Assembly: GCA_022824945.1 (NCBI GenBank)
Contig: JAJDYX010000006.1
Location: 1 to 64,000, forward strand
Direction: 5' to 3'
Source of the DNA: Candidatus Latescibacterota bacterium
Lineage (GTDB): Bacteria > Latescibacterota > UBA2968
Length of the DNA stretch: 64,000 nucleotides
Part shown: positions 3,016-10,724 of the stretch, one piece after another
How positions within the stretch are numbered: position 1 is the first letter of the stretch
Layout of the letters: every line of letters starts with the position of its first letter
Program-made: the position numbers and the translations under genes
The notes under the pieces: model-generated
Database searches by the model: none
What the model was told of the DNA's origin: nothing
Seen by the model: the letters and a program-made list of their open reading frames with translations, nothing else

Positions 3016-3048
3016 AAAAAAAGAGTCCGCGAAGTTGCTTGCGGACTC
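3016..3048 (-). terminator. Rho-independent terminator hairpin (GAGTCCGC stem)
   Basis: GAGTCCGC (3023-3030) pairs with GCGGACTC (3041-3048) around a 10-nt loop. On the minus strand the stem is followed by seven U residues (A-run at 3016-3022). It lies downstream of the ATPase-HEPN gene and directly before the ribosome binding site of the oxidoreductase. The same stem recurs at 10674-10698. Confidence 0.8.
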
Positions 3049-3057
3049 TGTTTACAC

Positions 3058-3118
3058 AGTGAATGTCGATGTACTCGGACTGGAAGTCCAGGGCGTTTAG
3101 GGAAATGGTTTGGGGCAT
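3058..3118 (-). pseudogene. 5' remnant of a second phytanoyl-CoA dioxygenase gene
   Basis: From an ATG at 3118 the minus strand encodes about 20 residues starting MPQTISLNALDFQSEYIDIH. This lines up without gaps with the first 20 residues of the intact PhyH protein (MTQTISLSDLDFQSKNIDIQ). The similarity then stops and runs into the terminator hairpin. The remnant lies 9 nt beyond the stop of the ATPase-HEPN gene. It marks the downstream edge of the ATPase module and shows that a second PhyH copy once stood here. Confidence 0.8.
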
Positions 3119-3127
3119 GAGATAAAC

Positions 3128-4663
3128 TTAAATTTGAGATTGGCTCGGAGCATCCCGTAGCGTGTCTAAAATTTCATTGCAGTATCCTTCAACAATCGTA
3201 CGCTCATGGAGTTGGAGTACCTCATCACGATTATGAGCCAAGGGATTTCTACACTTCGCAAGTAACTTTTGGCGTTCCTCCCAGTAATTCTTATCCTTAC
3301 CAAAGATAGGCTGAAAGAGTTCTTCCCATAAACCTCTCGCACGAATAATCTCAAACAATTGTGTGGGATAAGTAAAATCGATCAGACTCTGTGATGCTCT
3401 ATCTCCAAATGATTTTTCTTCTTTTTGCTGTGCTTTACGGCAGTCATCAAAAATGTTCTTTAAGTTTCGACGTGTTTTCCCCAGTTCGTCAATCCAGTTC
3501 ACTCCATACGCATTGGACAGGGTGTTTGTAATTACCTCACGAAGTGCTTTTTCTGTGTCTCTCCAGATCGGCCATAAATCTGCAGCAAATTCTGTTGCAC
3601 GCTCTTGGAGCTTAAGATAATCGTGAAAGTGTTCTGAATAGGCAACGTAAGTTCCATTTTGGGTTGGCTTAATCAATCCGTAGTTTTGAAGTTCAGTCAC
3701 ATCAGTTCGCTTGACATCAATAACGGGACCAAACAAAATTTGGATTAACTTATTAAGGGTCCCTTCCCCCCGCAGTAAACGAATCATGTCGTCGTAATGT
3801 TCAAAGAAGGACTGGCTAATCGTATCGGCGGCTTTATCGACATTAATTTTTTGATTTTCAAGAAATATCTCGACAATTTCACATCCTAACATTTCAAGAA
3901 GATAGGGGTGCGCCCCGCAATAGAATAACACACGTTCTCGGTCAGCATCAGATAGTGATATCCCGATAAATAAAAATTGATCAAAGTAGGTTTCTAAGTC
4001 CTCCTCACGGAACGTTGCTAAACGTTGAACCTGAAAAATGTTATGAAATGGGGAGTTGGATCCAGCATCTTGCTCAATATCTCTAATACTCCTACGAGAG
4101 GTTAAAACGAGCGATAGCCGATAATCCGGGTAATCAGCCAACTCTCGTAAGCGCTGAAAGGCCGTATCCCCTTTGAAGAGAAGTCGAGCCTGATCAAATT
4201 CATCAATAATGAAAAGAGTGCCATAGCCAGCTTCCTGGACTTTCTTAAAAAAGCGTTTAATTTGGTTCCACGGATCCTGAGCCTCCAATGCGCGGTCGGC
4301 TAAACGTTGAATTTGTTCTGTGAGCCAGTTTAAGTCCGCCATTTCATCAACACATTCAGTTACAAGCGAGCGGAAGAAATTCAACGACTGATTATACGAA
4401 GAAAGCCCTATCCAAATCGGAAGAACTCCCTTCTGGGTTAGCTTATCTTTCTGCTCAATGATCGTTTTGTAAGCCAAGCTGCTTTTGCCGATACGATGTA
4501 TCCCAATGATAGCCAGGTTCCCCGGATCCGTGGGCTGAATGATTCGACTTTCAATAACCCTTATAATTTCCTTACGACCGATGAAGCGTTCTCCGCGAAC
4601 AATTTTACCGTAATCTGCAAATGGATTTTCAAACGCAGAATTCATTCTGTTCTCCAATTTCAT
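3128..4663 (-). CDS. P-loop ATPase with C-terminal HEPN RNase-like domain
   Basis: This 511-aa protein starts with the NPFADYGKIVRGERFIGRKE segment typical of archaeal/STAND-like AAA ATPases. Walker A is GIHRIGKSS (about 54-62) and Walker B is LFIIDEFDQ (about 151-159), followed by an arginine-rich LTSRRS element and a helical/winged-helix part. The C-terminal region (about 365-500) is helical and carries RNPLAH, an R-x4-H motif (R472, H477) that is the catalytic signature of HEPN ribonucleases. ATPase-HEPN combinations are common in bacterial conflict systems, where the ATPase senses and the HEPN domain cuts RNA. The start overlaps the stop of the upstream 1587-aa gene by 4 nt, so the two are translationally coupled. 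A terminator follows. The HEPN call rests on one motif plus helical context. Confidence 0.75.
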   Translation of the reverse strand: MKLENRMNSAFENPFADYGKIVRGERFIGRKEIIRVIESRIIQPTDPGNLAIIGIHRIGKSSLAYKTIIEQKDKLTQKGVLPIWIGLSSYNQSLNFFRSLVTECVDEMADLNWLTEQIQRLADRALEAQDPWNQIKRFFKKVQEAGYGTLFIIDEFDQARLLFKGDTAFQRLRELADYPDYRLSLVLTSRRSIRDIEQDAGSNSPFHNIFQVQRLATFREEDLETYFDQFLFIGISLSDADRERVLFYCGAHPYLLEMLGCEIVEIFLENQKINVDKAADTISQSFFEHYDDMIRLLRGEGTLNKLIQILFGPVIDVKRTDVTELQNYGLIKPTQNGTYVAYSEHFHDYLKLQERATEFAADLWPIWRDTEKALREVITNTLSNAYGVNWIDELGKTRRNLKNIFDDCRKAQQKEEKSFGDRASQSLIDFTYPTQLFEIIRARGLWEELFQPIFGKDKNYWEERQKLLAKCRNPLAHNRDEVLQLHERTIVEGYCNEILDTLRDAPSQSQI

Positions 4664-7600
4664 CCATTAACGACAAGCCATTCTTTGAAAAGAGCAACCT
4701 GAATTTGGTAATATTGCCCCTGATCGTGTTTAACGACATCCCGTTTCACGAGATCGTCCAGAATTTTATCAACGCGTAAACAGGTTTCGCAGTCAATTTT
4801 ATCCCGATGACAGGGCCCTGTCCTGCTATTGGCGGCAATGGCCTTGAGAACTTTTAATGCATCGTCATCTGAGATAGCATCCGTTGATGTATCTCCCGAA
4901 TTAATGAGGTTATCAAATTTGTCTAAACCAAACGCATTTACACCCTGTATCAGTTCATTTTTAACCTGCTCTACATCCGCCTCTGTTACCAGTTCGGCAT
5001 GTTTAAGATTCATATATTCAACCAGACGGTTGCATAAGATTTGAATGTAGAATGGACTGCCCGCAGTGAGATCTAAAATCCGTTCAATTGCTTGCTCTCG
5101 GTAACGACTTTCACCCTGTCTGCCGCCGATACGGAGGGGATCTTCGATGAGTTTAGTAGCGTCTTGTTTGTTGAGATAGGTGACGCGTTCATCCTGTGTT
5201 GTGCCAAACTCGTTGGGGAAACGTTCCTTAAACTTTGGCATCATATCCTGACCCACCAAAACAGCACTGAAATAGTTTGCTTGCAACAACGCTTTCCAGT
5301 TTTGCATGAACGCTTCGTGAATTTCACCAGCAACGATTCGACTGTAAATATACTGGAATTCATCTATCAAGAGCACAACCCTTACACCACGCCAATCCTC
5401 TTGTCTAGAGACGAGGCGATCTAGGGTCTTGAAAGTGTCTTGAAAGCATTGCAGTGGGGTGGGATGATTATAGAAATCAAGATCATCGGGTATAGAGAGA
5501 TCTAATGAACTAAAACCATCATCGGATCGATCTTCAATCGCGTATTCCAATTCCGTTAAAATGCGCTTAAGAACTTGGTATAGGAGAGGTACTTCGGAAT
5601 CCGGATCCTGAATCGTCCCAATGTTCCCCAGATCAAGGATAAGTAGCTCCTTATCTTTTTGGAGTAACGTCTTCAGGTGATACAAAACCGAAGACTTGCC
5701 AGATCGTTTTTGTCCAAATACCATGACACACTTGCTCTGCAAGCGAGATTCTTGAATAGTCTGTGCAATGTTTTGGATTAACTCATCACGTCCAAAAAAC
5801 ATGGCTGGATCGCCGACAATTCCCCCTTCGGCATAGGCAGCATAAGGATTTTTAATCGTCTTAAACTCATCTTGAGGATAGAGGCGAATTGAGAAATTTT
5901 CGACCTGCGTTTTTTCTTGCTCATCTGCACGGGTACGATACCGGGCATAAATAGGAAAAGAAAATGTTTGGGAGTCTAAAGCTTTGTGGGTCACACGCAA
6001 TGGCACTTTCAGAATAGACGATTCGCCTCCACGTAAGGATTCATCGCGTTTAATATCTGACTCTGTGACCGTGAAAAATGCCTGGTCTCCCTTGATAACC
6101 AACTCCAATGCCTCAGCGGGGCTCCGCCCTTTCTCATTCTCTATCACAATCTGTACCTCAATTTTTCCGTTGGTGTCCGGTGCATAAGATTCCACAGGAA
6201 GCCTAAGTATCAATTGGGGTTTTGAAGTCACATAGAGTTCTTCAAGATATTCACTGATTTTTGTCTGGATGTTCTCGATCACTGGGTACAGCATCTCGAC
6301 AGATATTCGAGTGGGGATCTTTTCAATCTCTGATAGCAAATCGCGGCAAGAATTTTTAATCTGATCGCCCAAACGTTCTCGTGCTTCAAACTGGGTTTGT
6401 TTGCACAATTCTACTGCTTTTTCTAACATTTCTCGCAGATGTTGGACTCGGTCTTGGTCGAGGCCAAATCTGAGTCTGTCAACAATACTCCTGCACTGTT
6501 CAACGGCATCTTCTAACCAGGCTGTCTTTAATTGAAGGTTATTGAAGTGGCGTAAATTGATATTAAGTTCGCGTGTTTTTCCGGCGAGTCTATCACTCAA
6601 TTGGTCCCATAGAGAGATAAATTTCTGTCTCGAAAGGTCAGAATCGGGAATATCAACACCTTCATCCTTGAAGTAGCTTAGTGCCTTCGCACGTAAATCC
6701 TGTTGATCATATAAACGTCCCAGAAGACGACTTGCAGCATATCTGCTGCGAAAAACGAGATACGTAATGTCATCAAATATTCTTTGGGAATCAGCAAGAG
6801 TAATAACCTTGTGCATTGTCTTATCAATAGAAGGGGTATGAGGCGGCATAGGTATGTCAGCGCGTCCCAGGCGTGAATGAAGGAATCTTACGAGGGCATT
6901 GACAACATCCTGTTCATCTCGTTGTCTACGACTTCGGTCTCCATCATAAACACTGAGTGCTTCAGCATACCATTCTCGTGCTGCATCAAGATTTTCGTTG
7001 TTAACCACTACATCGTCTCCTTTAGAGGCGAAACAGCGGCCGAGGAATCTATAAAATCTGGGATCTTCATCTTCTCGAATCGAAATAATTTTGGCAGCAG
7101 ATAAGTAATAACTGGCACGGTCAGACGGTCGAGATGTTCTCAATTCTGTTGCTTGACGTTCTAAAAAATCAATATCTGAACGCTTGAATATCTTTGACTG
7201 AATCCGGTCCGGTCGTACGCCTGTAAAGTCACACCGATCCAAAAAAAACTGAGTAAATGCACTCATTGGCCCGCTTGAATAATCTGAAAGCTCCGCTTCA
7301 ATTACAATCTCGTCAAGGCGTTCTTTTTCGCCAGTCTGTTTGGCTTGACGAACGGCATTAAGCAGTTCGTCAGATATTCTATCTGATGAAACAGCCAAAA
7401 TTTGATTGAGCACTTCTTCTGCTTCATCGTAGCTTTCCTGTCTTGACAGACATAAGGCGAGGTTACGTTTGGCGGAGACATGGTTTGGCTGGCGTTCAAG
7501 AATCTCTCTGAATAGATTCTCAGCTTTTTTATATTTTTTTATTTGAAAGTAGGAACTCGCAATCTGCCACCGAATCTGGTCCTTTTTTTCTGTCGTTGTC

Positions 7601-9423
7601 GCCTGTTTGAATTGTTTTTCCAAGAGCTCAATCGTTTTATGCACATCAAACTTTTTGTAAATATTCGTCAGCAAATTTTCTAATGATTGCTGGTTGCGAA
7701 TCTGAGAACGATTCTGTTCAATAACTTTAATCGCATCCTCAAAGCGTTCGCGTTGTGATAGAAGCCCTGCTAAAGCATTTACAGCAGATTCCAAATTGTC
7801 GTTTTCACGAATGGCTTGTTTAAAAAACTGCTCAGCTTTGTCCAAATTTTTTTCAACTACTTGTGCCCGTTCGGCGCGAGCGAAGGGATTAGATCCCTTT
7901 GGTACGGCTATCTCCTGTGCGTACTCTCCCCATTTGTCGTAGTTTTCCTTTGCATTCGGGTAATTCTTATTGATAGAGAGAACCTGTCTGATATGTGAAA
8001 TTGCTATGGCATAATCTCCATTATCCGCTGCTCTTTCGGCAAGTTCATACTGTTCATGAATTGTCTTGTATCGAAAAATTTGGGTTGCATTTGGTCCTTT
8101 AGGTCCTTGAGTCGCTTGGAAAGAAACAGGGATTGGATCATCGGAAAAATAAGTCAGCTCTTCACGCAACACAGGATCTATAATTGCACTTATATGAAAG
8201 AAATACTCAGTTCCTTTTCCATCCCGAAGAAAACCGTAGCCTTGATGAGACTTGTAGCTATAAATATGGCCTTGTGGCGGTTGGTCTTCTACAGCTTGAG
8301 ATACTTCCTTTGCATCCATCTGCCTTGAAATCTCTTCAGCGACGCTCTGGTAATTTTCTGTCGGTTGCTGGTCAAGAGCGTTCAATGTTTTTTCAAAAGA
8401 AGAAATTGAAATTTCACCAGCTATGGCCTTCTTCAAAGCTTCTTTTGCCGTCGTTTCTCGGCCTGCCATCTTGAGGAGGTAAACCCCTGTTTCCAATAGG
8501 AGTGAGGTTTCCTCTTGAGAAATTTTTCGGTGTTCAGTCTGGCATATATGGCTCAATTCCCTGCAGGTATTGAACTTGATCAATAGATGTACATACAAAT
8601 ACCAAGCCTCTATATCATCGGTGACCGGCAATCGCTGGAAAATCTGACCCAAACTGTAGCAAGCTAGTTCCTCGTTTTCAGTTTTCTGAGCGACGACAGC
8701 AAGATTATACCAATCGATCTCATTTTGCGAAAAAATTGCAATGTCTTGATAGTTATTGAGAGCCTCTTCTCGATTGCCAGAAAGTGTATAGAAGTACGCG
8801 AGGTGGCGTTTTATGCTTGACGAACTCCTATAACGATTCGCCAAACTCTGGAGTTCGGTGATAATCGGCTGAATGCGACCAAATGTTGTACTTAGCTCAT
8901 TGTTCTTCTTTGCGTATTGGTATTTATCCCGGATTCTGTCCCAGATTTTAGTCGCCTCTTTTTTATGTCTGTCACTTAAGTCCTTTAAGTCCTCCTGTGG
9001 AAACTTAAAATCTGGTTCTTTAAGCTCAATTTTTGCGCTTTGACATTTGGTTTGAAAGCGGGCATCAATTTCGATCAATTTTTTTTCTGTCTCAATTTCG
9101 GCACTTGATAACACATTAACTTTTGTTTTTTCGGATTGATCGGCTTTGGGTTTTTCCTCAGCAGTTAATGTATCGGAATGGTTCTCATTCAATGGTTCAC
9201 TGGGCGGAGAACCATCTCTTGATATATCTGGATCCGGCAAGGGCTGCAAATAGTTGACTCTTTCAATGGGAATCTCTGCCGGGTCTTGATTTTCTTCGAC
9301 TTCAATTTTTATATGGTCCTGTCCGATTTCTACGAACCTGCCTGAGACTGTATCACCACCCTTGAGAACAAACTTGGCACTACTGCCAATTGGAACTCGC
9401 TTCTGAATCCATATAGCATTCAT
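4660..9423 (-). CDS. Giant Sm-like / TPR / cold-shock / P-loop ATPase protein
   Basis: This 1587-aa protein has an unusual layout. Residues about 10-60 form a small beta domain (AKFVLKGGDTVSGRFVEI) resembling an Sm/Hfq or SH3-like barrel. Residues about 65-170 are charged and coiled. TPR-like helices run about 190-330. A cold-shock-type OB domain lies near 385-450 (GHIYSYKSHQGYGFLRD, YFFHIS). More TPRs run about 455-680, then a long helical region. A beta-sandwich-like segment (about 1115-1215) precedes the ATPase, with Walker A GQKRSGKSS (about 1235) and Walker B VVLLIDEFQ (about 1345), and a winged-helix-like C-terminus. Two likely RNA-binding domains plus a partner with a HEPN motif suggest an RNA-sensing or RNA-targeting complex; this is inference. 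GGAG lies 7 nt before the start, and a promoter is at 9469-9497. The DNA is visibly richer in A/T than the flanking metabolic genes. Confidence 0.8.
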   Translation of the reverse strand: MNAIWIQKRVPIGSSAKFVLKGGDTVSGRFVEIGQDHIKIEVEENQDPAEIPIERVNYLQPLPDPDISRDGSPPSEPLNENHSDTLTAEEKPKADQSEKTKVNVLSSAEIETEKKLIEIDARFQTKCQSAKIELKEPDFKFPQEDLKDLSDRHKKEATKIWDRIRDKYQYAKKNNELSTTFGRIQPIITELQSLANRYRSSSSIKRHLAYFYTLSGNREEALNNYQDIAIFSQNEIDWYNLAVVAQKTENEELACYSLGQIFQRLPVTDDIEAWYLYVHLLIKFNTCRELSHICQTEHRKISQEETSLLLETGVYLLKMAGRETTAKEALKKAIAGEISISSFEKTLNALDQQPTENYQSVAEEISRQMDAKEVSQAVEDQPPQGHIYSYKSHQGYGFLRDGKGTEYFFHISAIIDPVLREELTYFSDDPIPVSFQATQGPKGPNATQIFRYKTIHEQYELAERAADNGDYAIAISHIRQVLSINKNYPNAKENYDKWGEYAQEIAVPKGSNPFARAERAQVVEKNLDKAEQFFKQAIRENDNLESAVNALAGLLSQRERFEDAIKVIEQNRSQIRNQQSLENLLTNIYKKFDVHKTIELLEKQFKQATTTEKKDQIRWQIASSYFQIKKYKKAENLFREILERQPNHVSAKRNLALCLSRQESYDEAEEVLNQILAVSSDRISDELLNAVRQAKQTGEKERLDEIVIEAELSDYSSGPMSAFTQFFLDRCDFTGVRPDRIQSKIFKRSDIDFLERQATELRTSRPSDRASYYLSAAKIISIREDEDPRFYRFLGRCFASKGDDVVVNNENLDAAREWYAEALSVYDGDRSRRQRDEQDVVNALVRFLHSRLGRADIPMPPHTPSIDKTMHKVITLADSQRIFDDITYLVFRSRYAASRLLGRLYDQQDLRAKALSYFKDEGVDIPDSDLSRQKFISLWDQLSDRLAGKTRELNINLRHFNNLQLKTAWLEDAVEQCRSIVDRLRFGLDQDRVQHLREMLEKAVELCKQTQFEARERLGDQIKNSCRDLLSEIEKIPTRISVEMLYPVIENIQTKISEYLEELYVTSKPQLILRLPVESYAPDTNGKIEVQIVIENEKGRSPAEALELVIKGDQAFFTVTESDIKRDESLRGGESSILKVPLRVTHKALDSQTFSFPIYARYRTRADEQEKTQVENFSIRLYPQDEFKTIKNPYAAYAEGGIVGDPAMFFGRDELIQNIAQTIQESRLQSKCVMVFGQKRSGKSSVLYHLKTLLQKDKELLILDLGNIGTIQDPDSEVPLLYQVLKRILTELEYAIEDRSDDGFSSLDLSIPDDLDFYNHPTPLQCFQDTFKTLDRLVSRQEDWRGVRVVLLIDEFQYIYSRIVAGEIHEAFMQNWKALLQANYFSAVLVGQDMMPKFKERFPNEFGTTQDERVTYLNKQDATKLIEDPLRIGGRQGESRYREQAIERILDLTAGSPFYIQILCNRLVEYMNLKHAELVTEADVEQVKNELIQGVNAFGLDKFDNLINSGDTSTDAISDDDALKVLKAIAANSRTGPCHRDKIDCETCLRVDKILDDLVKRDVVKHDQGQYYQIQVALFKEWLVVNG

Positions 9424-9468
9424 TTTTTTCTCCGATCATCTATTGCGATTATGGATGCTTTGACTTTT

Positions 9469-9497
9469 ATGATACTCAAATCAACGCAAACTGTCAT
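9469..9497 (-). promoter_or_regulatory. Sigma-70-type promoter of the ATPase-HEPN module
   Basis: On the minus strand ATGACA (9497-9492) and TATCAT (9474-9469) are spaced by 17 nt, about 45 nt before the start codon at 9423. About 55 bp around it (9458-9515) are nearly identical to the PhyH promoter region (1974-2031), including the upstream GCACARAATATGC stretch. The module therefore seems to use a promoter that originally drove a PhyH copy. Confidence 0.65.
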
Positions 9498-9512
9498 GCA
9501 TATTCTGTGCTT

Positions 9513-9794
9513 TTAGACCTGAAATCCGAAAGCCTGTGTGATCTTTTTTGCAGTTTCCGAGGCTGTTAATCTGGTGTTGTTAATTTTTACGTAATTTTGT
9601 GTATAAAAGAAATCGCCATTTGAATTGAGTTTGTAATTTTTGTCACTTTCAATCAGATTTTTTCTCGACGCTTCAATATCGCGTTTTGAAGGTTTCTGTT
9701 CTAACCTTAATGGAGATACGTTTCGCTTGAGGCGTTCTTCTTGATCTGCATCGAGTTCGACGAAATAGATTGTTCCTCCTTTTTCTCGAAGTCT
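9513..9794 (-). pseudogene. C-terminal fragment of a small P-loop kinase/AAA-family protein
   Basis: One minus-strand frame is open from just after an in-frame stop (9795-9797) to a stop at 9513-9515. It reads LREKGGTIYFVELDADQ, then a KPSKRDIE segment and a NYVKINNTRLTA segment. I recognise this as the C-terminal half of a small (about 180-aa) P-loop kinase-like family annotated as AAA family ATPase. The P-loop half and the start are missing, so this is a decayed fragment of about 93 codons. It sits between two pieces of the duplicated Gfo-PhyH junction and looks like an insertion there. Confidence 0.6.
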
Positions 9795-10666: not shown

Positions 10667-10703
10667 AAAAAAAGAGTCCGCGAGGTGCTTGCGGACTCTT
10701 TTT
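10667..10703 (-). terminator. Terminator hairpin after the korB-CBS gene (GAGTCCGC stem)
   Basis: GAGTCCGC (10674-10681) pairs with GCGGACTC (10691-10698) around a 9-nt loop. Seven U residues follow on the minus strand and five T on the plus strand, so it could work both ways. Stem and context are the same as at 3016-3048, again immediately before the start region of the next minus-strand gene. Confidence 0.8.
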
Positions 10704-10724
10704 GCGCTGTGATGTTGACGCGCG

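What the first reader, a model, noticed from the sequence alone, without database searches (positions are those of the whole stretch)
3128..9423. Two-gene module: Sm-like/TPR/cold-shock/ATPase protein coupled to an ATPase-HEPN protein
Seen: a 1587-aa protein with two likely RNA-binding folds (Sm-like N-terminus and a cold-shock OB domain), TPRs and a P-loop ATPase overlaps by 4 nt with a 511-aa P-loop ATPase ending in R-x4-H. Known: HEPN proteins with R-x4-6-H cut RNA, often in anti-phage or stress systems controlled by NTPases. Inference: the large protein senses an RNA or protein cue and licenses the HEPN subunit to cut RNA. I do not recognise this pair as a named defence system. It is the best candidate in the window for an undescribed system.
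Basis: partly seen in the sequence, partly recalled or inferred. Interest (0 to 1): 0.88.

Follow-up and report, generated by a model that had tools for sequence, protein, structure and literature searches.

The report
Paired ATPases controlling an RNA-cutting domain
Two neighbouring genes, found together in four bacterial phyla, look like a sensor protein and a partner that probably cuts RNA when triggered, most likely as a defence against viruses; in some relatives the cutting part seems to have been replaced by other output parts.

Summary
In detail: a 1587-aa gene (9423-4660, minus strand) overlaps by 4 nt a 511-aa gene (4663-3128). The large protein has an Sm-like start, TPRs, a cold-shock domain, a beta-sandwich and a STAND-type ATPase; the small one is an Orc1/Cdc6-like ATPase ending in a Swt1-type HEPN domain with R472-x4-H477. 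The pair is real: the small gene or its remains follow the large one in 15 of 15 loci from four phyla. R472 and H477 are invariant in 13 of 13 aligned small proteins, and HEPN_Swt1 matches all 13. In two Chloroflexota pairs the R/H motif is lost and a new C-terminal part is appended, a Ser/Thr kinase in one. Distant cousins have a type I methyltransferase in front. So HEPN seems to sit in an exchangeable output slot. The module is patchy, decays, and moved recently (dS 0.04-0.06 against 0.18-0.21 for flanking genes). Best reading: a sensor-effector HEPN-RNase conflict system. RNA cleavage and phage defence are inferred, not shown; the window copy is not in a defence island. A twin-STAND operon with HEPN effectors was predicted in 2021; this is a new variant of that kind.

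The parts
4660..9423 (-). large gene, 1587 aa: Sm-like / TPR / CSD / TPR-helical / beta-sandwich / STAND-type ATPase (sensor and scaffold, inferred)
9241..9420 (-). Sm-like N-terminal domain, residues 2-61
   Evidence: AlphaFold helix + five strands; weak profile matches, 15 of 35 named Sm/LSm; the G121 relative matches DUF2642 at 9-60, above cut-off
8299..9105 (-). first helical (TPR-like) array, residues 107-375
   Evidence: AlphaFold
8071..8274 (-). cold-shock OB domain, residues 384-451; missing in 5 of 5 aligned Poribacteria proteins
   Evidence: Pfam CSD 7.9e-5, PADLOC CSD_V 6.9e-8; alignment A7
7291..8061 (-). second TPR array, residues 455-711
   Evidence: Pfam, AlphaFold
6226..7260 (-). 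long helical region, residues 722-1066
   Evidence: AlphaFold
5878..6213 (-). beta-sandwich-like domain before the ATPase, residues 1071-1182
   Evidence: AlphaFold strands; a 25%-identical stretch lies before the ATPase of the Acinetobacter methylase protein, alignment A11
4951..5811 (-). nSTAND1-type ATPase, residues 1205-1491
   Evidence: Pfam nSTAND1 6.2e-9
5689..5715 (-). Walker A of the large protein, GQKRSGKSS 1237-1245
   Evidence: G1242, K1243, S1244, S1245 invariant in 11 of 11
5356..5376 (-). Walker B of the large protein, VLLIDEF 1350-1356
   Evidence: D1354 E1355 F1356 invariant in 11 of 11
3128..4663 (-). small gene, 511 aa: ATPase plus C-terminal HEPN (effector, inferred)
3884..4588 (-). 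Orc1/Cdc6-like ATPase, residues 26-260
   Evidence: Pfam ATPase_2; Foldseek best 2qen and 2fna, E 1.1e-5 and 2e-4, TM-scores 0.24-0.34
4478..4504 (-). Walker A of the small protein, GIHRIGKSS 54-62
   Evidence: K60 S61 S62 invariant in 13 of 13; G59 in 12 of 13
4193..4216 (-). Walker B of the small protein, LFIIDEFD 150-157
   Evidence: D154-D157 invariant in 13 of 13
3155..3574 (-). Swt1-type HEPN domain, residues 364-503
   Evidence: PF18731 in 13 of 13 homologues; PADLOC PDC-M34B in 13 of 13; helical in the model
3233..3250 (-). R472-x4-H477 (RNPLAH), predicted catalytic motif
   Evidence: R and H invariant in 13 of 13 and present in three further Chloroflexota proteins
3060..3118 (-). 83% copy of the first 59 nt of the PhyH gene behind the module: footprint of its arrival
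3016..3062 (-). second copy of the hairpin, terminator-like sequence that lies behind KorB (10667-10712)
   Evidence: repeat shown; read as a terminator by eye (the scan does not list it)
9500..9790 (-). remnant of a kinase-like gene (by sequence look) that travels with the module; 188-aa open frame in G037

Best explanation
A two-gene sensor-effector conflict system. The large protein senses a cue through its Sm-like/TPR/OB front (RNA or an RNA-protein complex is the best guess) and changes state through its STAND-type ATPase. It then assembles with, and activates, the ATPase of the small protein, which switches on the attached HEPN domain to cut RNA, probably shutting down an infected cell. 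Shown here: the anatomy, the pairing, the invariant HEPN and nucleotide-binding motifs, loss and swapping of the output domain in relatives, patchiness and recent movement. Inferred: hetero-oligomerisation, the cue, RNA cleavage, phage defence.
For: Pairing 15 of 15 from the large gene; from the small gene 9 of 9 testable Poribacteria genomes and 4 of 4 full-length Chloroflexota ones. The genes overlap by 4 nt in the window, G032 and L050 and lie 7-15 nt apart in the other 10 of 12 junctions listed (start codons chosen by me). R472/H477 invariant in 13 of 13. In G121 the aligned R/H reads CEPLMQ and a Ser/Thr kinase (2.2e-37) is appended; in G371 it reads SQPLMQ and a C-terminal stretch with RNDRTH is appended. 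Distant pairs put a type I methyltransferase in front of the large-type ATPase. Presence in 3 and absence in 8 of 11 genus genomes at one site (in G029 only part of the site is visible), decay by IS and stops in G037, dS of the module 0.04-0.06 against 0.18-0.21 for flanks, window and G032 proteins grouping with Poribacteria rather than with G038 or G041 of their own phylum (support 93/93, just under the tool's star).
Against: The window copy lies among metabolic genes, and several Poribacteria copies share the same neighbours by sequence look (downstream in L050, L052, L053, L056; upstream in L052, L054, L056), as for a resident gene. Defence-like neighbours in G038 (L049/L024), L051, L054 and L057 were picked by eye, without a control. 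No match in phages or plasmids at 1e-5 or in viral contigs. No structure confirms the HEPN fold. The second output in G371 has no Pfam or PADLOC match, and G121 and G371 are long branches, so their HEPN columns are less surely aligned. G038 has a damaged Walker A and lacks about 43 residues in an otherwise open small gene. dN/dS of the module is higher than in flanking genes.
Confidence: 0.66

Rival explanations
1. A housekeeping or stress RNA-processing complex: Sm-like and cold-shock domains bind cellular RNA, the ATPases remodel it and the HEPN domain trims it, with no role in defence.
For: Two predicted RNA-binding folds next to an RNase-like domain; the window locus is not a defence island and several Poribacteria copies share constant neighbours.
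Against: Patchy: both genes, one pair of them decayed, in 5 of 64 phylum genomes plus remnants in one more, 10 of 84 Poribacteria (11 matched, one by its HEPN part only), 4 of 400 Chloroflexota in full form; less diverged than its flanks; output swapped for a kinase; CSD dispensable.
Confidence: 0.14
2. A stress- or starvation-triggered growth-arrest (toxin-like) module whose large protein mainly restrains the HEPN protein, with phages only one of several triggers or none.
For: Overlapping or closely spaced two-gene operon, large regulator first, HEPN protein second; patchiness.
Against: Antitoxins are usually small proteins without ATPase domains (recalled); here Walker motifs are kept in both proteins, and the layout resembles the predicted counter-invader twin-STAND operon.
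Confidence: 0.13
3. The HEPN domain is a non-catalytic RNA- or nucleotide-binding adaptor and the ATPases do the work.
For: Eukaryotic Swt1 HEPN is described as possibly inactive (PMC3710099, passages); the fold seems kept without the motif in G121 and G371.
Against: R472 and H477 invariant in 13 of 13 proteins (the other 12 are 47-97% identical to the window's); in the two relatives where they are lost another part is appended.
Confidence: 0.07

Closest known systems
Predicted two-gene nSTAND2 counter-invader operon with GT4 or HEPN effectors (PMC8195603, section 15 read)
   Same: Two adjacent genes, each with a STAND-type NTPase; one carries an exchangeable effector, HEPN among them; described there as mobile.
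   Different: There the effector-bearing NTPase has eroded motifs; here both keep Walker A and B. No nSTAND2 among the matches listed for either window protein up to E 0.5 (25 of 31 families listed for the large one), which matches nSTAND1 instead. No Sm-like/TPR/CSD sensor is mentioned in the section read.
Swt1-like HEPN with STAND-ATPase, TPR and S1 (Npun_F6454, MED222_16016, Desac_1927; Table 1 of PMC3710099, passages seen)
   Same: Same HEPN family with STAND, TPR and an OB-type RNA-binding domain.
   Different: Listed as fusions; here the parts are split over two genes with two ATPases, and the OB domain is of cold-shock type with an Sm-like start. I had no way to fetch the named sequences.
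PADLOC candidate PDC-M34B
   Same: All 13 small proteins match one PDC-M34B model; in the window protein over the HEPN part.
   Different: The model is 192 long and the match leaves out the ATPase; nothing named PDC-M34 matches the large protein.
SAMD9 family (PMC5445408, abstract and passages)
   Same: A STAND-like NTPase with TPRs and a cold-shock-like OB domain, linked to antiviral response.
   Different: Single protein with AlbA_2 and SIR2-like parts; no HEPN mentioned. Resemblance of layout only; homology not tested.
Acinetobacter ursingii plasmid pair: N6-methylase/specificity/ATPase protein plus 520-aa ATPase behind a type I R subunit (L036)
   Same: Large protein ending in a related ATPase (blastp 1e-16) overlapping by 8 nt a small ATPase protein (8e-9).
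   Different: Methyltransferase instead of Sm/TPR/CSD; no HEPN match in the small protein up to E 0.1.

Membership tests
HEPN, Swt1-like (PF18731) | profile match | tested here: met
   For the window protein mixed at Pfam's cut-off of 27.5: 25.7 bits in the protein scan, 28.1 in the genome search. All 13 homologues match at E<=0.01, best 1.2e-9.
HEPN, Swt1-like (PF18731) | R-x4-6-H motif | tested here: met
   R472-x4-H477 invariant in 13 of 13.
HEPN, Swt1-like (PF18731) | helical-bundle HEPN fold | tested here: inconclusive
   AlphaFold helical over 364-503; whole model mean pLDDT 71, pTM 0.42, residues 1-59 below 50. The 50 Foldseek rows shown are dominated by ATPases, none a HEPN by its title; the profile against PDB sequences gives two matches, E 0.44 and 0.88, neither a HEPN by name.
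HEPN, Swt1-like (PF18731) | RNA cleavage | not testable with these tools
   needs an assay
Twin-STAND nSTAND2 operon (PMC8195603) | two adjacent genes, each with a STAND-type NTPase | tested here: met
Twin-STAND nSTAND2 operon (PMC8195603) | NTPases of the nSTAND2 family | tested here: not met
   no nSTAND2 among listed matches up to E 0.5 for the window proteins (25 of 31 families listed for the large one) nor among the 9 families matched by the 13 small proteins at E<=0.01 (nSTAND1 in 6 of 13). Small proteins of the distant pairs in G089 and G215 do match nSTAND2.
Twin-STAND nSTAND2 operon (PMC8195603) | effector-bearing STAND is inactive | tested here: not met
   By motifs: Walker A complete in 12 of 13 and Walker B DEFD in 13 of 13 small proteins. 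Activity itself not tested.
Twin-STAND nSTAND2 operon (PMC8195603) | GT4 or HEPN effector | tested here: met
   HEPN_Swt1
Twin-STAND nSTAND2 operon (PMC8195603) | conserved arginine finger in both proteins | not tested
   R190 and R191 are invariant in the small proteins, but which residue would act as the finger was not worked out.
STAND-TPR-S1-HEPN proteins (PMC3710099) | homology to Npun_F6454, MED222_16016 or Desac_1927 | not testable with these tools
   these sequences could not be fetched by name
Sm/LSm/Hfq fold (N-terminal domain) | helix followed by a five-stranded barrel | tested here: inconclusive
   predicted order of elements fits; sequence support weak; the 50 Foldseek rows shown for the 1200-aa model are mainly TPR and other helical-repeat proteins
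Known anti-phage system | a shown effect on phage plating | not testable with these tools
   needs an experiment

The most novel reading that the evidence does not exclude
A general twin-ATPase relay in which both ends can be exchanged: the large ATPase takes a type I methyltransferase (DNA) or an Sm/TPR/OB front (RNA), and the small ATPase takes a HEPN RNase, a protein kinase or a DNA-binding domain. The window's version would be the RNA-sensing, RNA-cutting counterpart of a restriction system, in which a spent HEPN is kept as a scaffold once a new effector is added.
Probability: 0.4. Interest if true: 0.78.

Novelty: new variant of a known kind. Interest (0 to 1): 0.6.

Why it matters
If true, it links an Hfq/Sm-like RNA-binding start to a HEPN RNase through two STAND-type ATPases that both keep their nucleotide-binding motifs, and relatives provide natural output swaps. 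I recall no defence switch with such a start, and one paper search for the combination showed none among its 15 listed of 31. It offers a defined two-gene test of how STAND pairs relay a signal, and a candidate RNA-centred immune system of little-cultured lineages.

Tried and rejected
Pattern scans of viral contigs and tblastn against phages found no relative. Plasmids gave nothing at 1e-5 for the small protein and, at E 10, 14 records with E 0.2 or worse, 7 of them in annotated Swt1-HEPN proteins; of these I read two loci, where no ATPase gene is annotated next to the HEPN gene; not pursued. A Gammaproteobacteria search gave only the centre genome (1 of 369). I considered that the C-termini of the Acinetobacter and G049 small proteins are worn HEPN domains; the alignment there is not convincing and I do not claim it. 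No Rfam family reached its cut-off in the window. Promoter- and terminator-like sites were no more than in shuffles (10 against 12.5, 5 against 6.7). Eight paper searches led to the published descriptions named as closest known; PMC7159879 gave only reference-list passages for my terms and PMC12839542 passages on DUF499-HEPN systems. Most subscription papers are not held, so absence from print is not shown.

Rows dropped before counts: the small genes of L048, L052 and L062 (decayed, frameshifted or split) are not in the 13-row alignment; the large genes of L048, L050, L055, L059 and L062 (cut or interrupted) are not in the 11-row one. G853 was left out of the Poribacteria pairing count because its match starts at the contig's end inside the small gene, and G910 because only a HEPN-like stretch matched; G873 is counted although frameshifted. 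Of the five further Chloroflexota matches, G089, G215 and G399 are distant ATPase matches, and G399's large neighbour was not scanned for domains. The window's genome is rated 5.98% contaminated; the same gene order in G037, one contig, argues against a stray contig.


Full report
What is there. On the minus strand, a 1587-aa gene (9423-4660) runs into a 511-aa gene (4663-3128) with a 4-nt overlap. The region has a lower GC content (0.42-0.47) than the rest of the first 20 kb (0.51-0.56). The large protein reads, from its start: an Sm-like domain (helix plus five strands, residues 2-61), a helical TPR-like array, a cold-shock OB domain (384-451), more TPRs, a long helical part, a beta-sandwich-like part (1071-1182) and an nSTAND1-type ATPase. 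The Sm-like label is weakly supported by sequence: a profile of 15 homologues has 35 PDB matches up to E 10, 15 of them named Sm/LSm (best 0.006), 6 biotin ligases (best 0.0036) and 8 NusA. The model has mean pLDDT 78.5 but pTM 0.48, so local folds are usable and the overall arrangement is not; the Foldseek rows shown for it are mainly TPR and other helical-repeat proteins. The small protein is an ATPase whose best fold matches are 2qen and 2fna, followed by Orc/Cdc6 chains (E 1.1e-5 to 8e-4, low TM-scores), and then a helical domain matching HEPN_Swt1 with R472-x4-H477. Its model is poorer (pLDDT 71.2, pTM 0.42, residues 1-59 below 50).

Is the pair real? The one scan of the GTDB species genomes, made with the large protein's ATPase region, matched 299 stretches, of which 15 encode relatives: 4 Latescibacterota, 7 Poribacteria, 3 Chloroflexota and one Candidatus Parabeggiatoa. 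In 15 of 15 the small gene, or its remains, lies directly behind the large one; it has an open frame in 12, is decayed in L048, and is frameshifted or split in L052 and L062. Starting from the small gene: in Poribacteria 11 of 84 genomes match, and in all 9 where the upstream DNA of a full-type gene could be tested the large gene is there; in Chloroflexota 9 of 400 match, 4 of them full-length with HEPN, all 4 paired; in Gammaproteobacteria 1 of 369, the centre itself. In the window's own phylum 8 of 64 genomes match the small protein: five with both genes (one of them decayed), one with remnants of both genes at two distant places (G050), and two with distant ATPases only.

What is conserved. 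In 13 aligned small proteins (12 of them 47-97% identical to the window's) R472, H477, K60, S61 and the DEFD Walker B are invariant; G59 is V in G038, which also lacks about 43 residues. HEPN_Swt1 matches 13 of 13, as does a PADLOC candidate-defence model, PDC-M34B. In 11 aligned large proteins Walker A (GKSS) and Walker B (DEF) are invariant and the Sm-like start is present, but the cold-shock domain is missing in 5 of 5 Poribacteria and present in the other 6. So the OB domain looks accessory and the Sm-like start belongs to the core.

The output slot. Two Chloroflexota pairs are telling. In G121 (L082) the large protein keeps the Sm-like start (a DUF2642 match above cut-off), TPRs, a CSD match below cut-off and the ATPase; its partner is an 802-aa open frame in which the positions of R472 and H477 read CEPLMQ and a Ser/Thr kinase (2.2e-37) is appended. 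In G371 (L083) they read SQPLMQ and a further C-terminal stretch containing RNDRTH follows; I read that by eye as a second HEPN motif, and neither Pfam nor PADLOC recognises it. The two are long branches that group together in the tree, so this may be one loss or two, and their HEPN columns are less surely aligned. In G215, a more distant pair, a beta-propeller protein with an ATPase sits beside an ATPase with a DNA-binding Trans_reg_C domain. The simplest reading is that HEPN fills an exchangeable output slot, its catalytic motif being lost where another output is added.

The input slot. A plasmid of Acinetobacter ursingii carries a type I R subunit, then a protein with N6-methylase, specificity and ATPase parts, overlapping by 8 nt a 520-aa ATPase protein. 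The two ATPase proteins are related to the window's (24% and 26% identity over the matched parts; 1e-16 and 8e-9), and a stretch before the methylase's ATPase resembles our beta-sandwich part (25%). A similar layout occurs in G049 of the window's class, with a sigma-54 regulator upstream; there the large protein's ATPase matches ours (8.5e-12), while the small neighbour was recognised by ATPase families only. These cousins are clear for the ATPases, not for the ends.

Movement. In the genus, 3 of 11 genomes (window included) hold the module between KorB and PhyH, at two different positions; the other 8 lack it there (in G029 only KorB to Gfo/Idh is visible), G038 having it elsewhere. Block 3060-9790 is 97.4% identical to G032; the flanking blocks are 93-95%, apart from a 76-nt piece at 86%. 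Synonymous divergence from G032 is 0.039 (small) and 0.058 (large) against 0.178 (KorB) and 0.213 (PhyH); from G037 0.046 (part of the large gene) against 0.19-0.20 for three flanking genes. dN/dS is higher in the module (0.28-0.39 in these close comparisons) than in the flanks (0.07-0.17). A 59-nt copy of the PhyH start and a copy of the hairpin behind KorB sit behind the module in the window. In G037 the large gene holds an IS and the small one stops. In the tree the window and G032 proteins group with Poribacteria (93/93), not with G038 or the G041 part of their own phylum. This is how conflict genes behave, but it does not prove defence.

Neighbourhood. The window copy is among metabolic genes, and several Poribacteria copies share the same neighbours by sequence look. 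I looked by eye for defence-like neighbours and tested six proteins from four loci; all six gave such matches: PDC-M38A/AbiLi-like and DUF3226 in G038, PDC-M56A and PDC-M56B in L054, HSDR_N in L051, CHAT in L057. They were picked for their looks and there was no control, so I give this little weight.

Mechanism and standing. I think the large protein senses RNA or an RNA-protein complex with its front, switches through its ATPase, pairs with the small ATPase and licenses the HEPN domain to cut RNA (0.66 for the sensor-effector RNase conflict-system reading; phage defence as such somewhat lower). Housekeeping RNA processing, a stress toxin and a non-catalytic HEPN are the rivals. The closest published idea is the twin-STAND operon with GT4 or HEPN effectors of PMC8195603 (section 15 read); the window pair meets its layout and effector but fails two of its features, the nSTAND2 family and an inactive effector-bearing NTPase. 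PMC3710099 lists STAND-ATPase, TPR and S1 with Swt1-like HEPN (passages). I therefore call it a new variant of a known kind.

Noticed in passing
window 3016-3118 and 10667-10712, 1885-1943: Behind the module lie a copy of the PhyH gene start and a copy of the hairpin behind KorB, footprints of insertion or recombination.
   Followed up: partly
window 9500-9790: Remnant of a kinase-like gene (188-aa open frame in G037) that travels with the module.
   Followed up: partly
L048:5008-6366 and L081:5251-6498: A transposase gene inside the large gene in G037 (DDE_Tnp_1_4) and, by sequence look only, another in G195.
   Followed up: partly
L039:3229-11977 (G049): Sigma-54 regulator upstream of an N6-methylase/specificity/ATPase protein and a 516-aa ATPase protein: a possible inducible cousin of the system.
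   Followed up: partly
L045:6059-9397 and L043:1458-2771: DUF499 proteins with an N-terminal HEPN_Swt1 in relatives of the window genome, like the DUF499-HEPN systems mentioned in PMC12839542 (passages).
   Followed up: no
L095:7578-9767 (G910): A stretch matching the HEPN part of the small protein lies in a 729-aa protein with sigma-54 activator parts, beside similar-looking paralogues.
   Followed up: no
L110:3952-7643 (G035), between PhyH and Gfo/Idh: The same KorB-PhyH site holds about 3.7 kb of other DNA in G035: possibly a small insertion hotspot.
   Followed up: no
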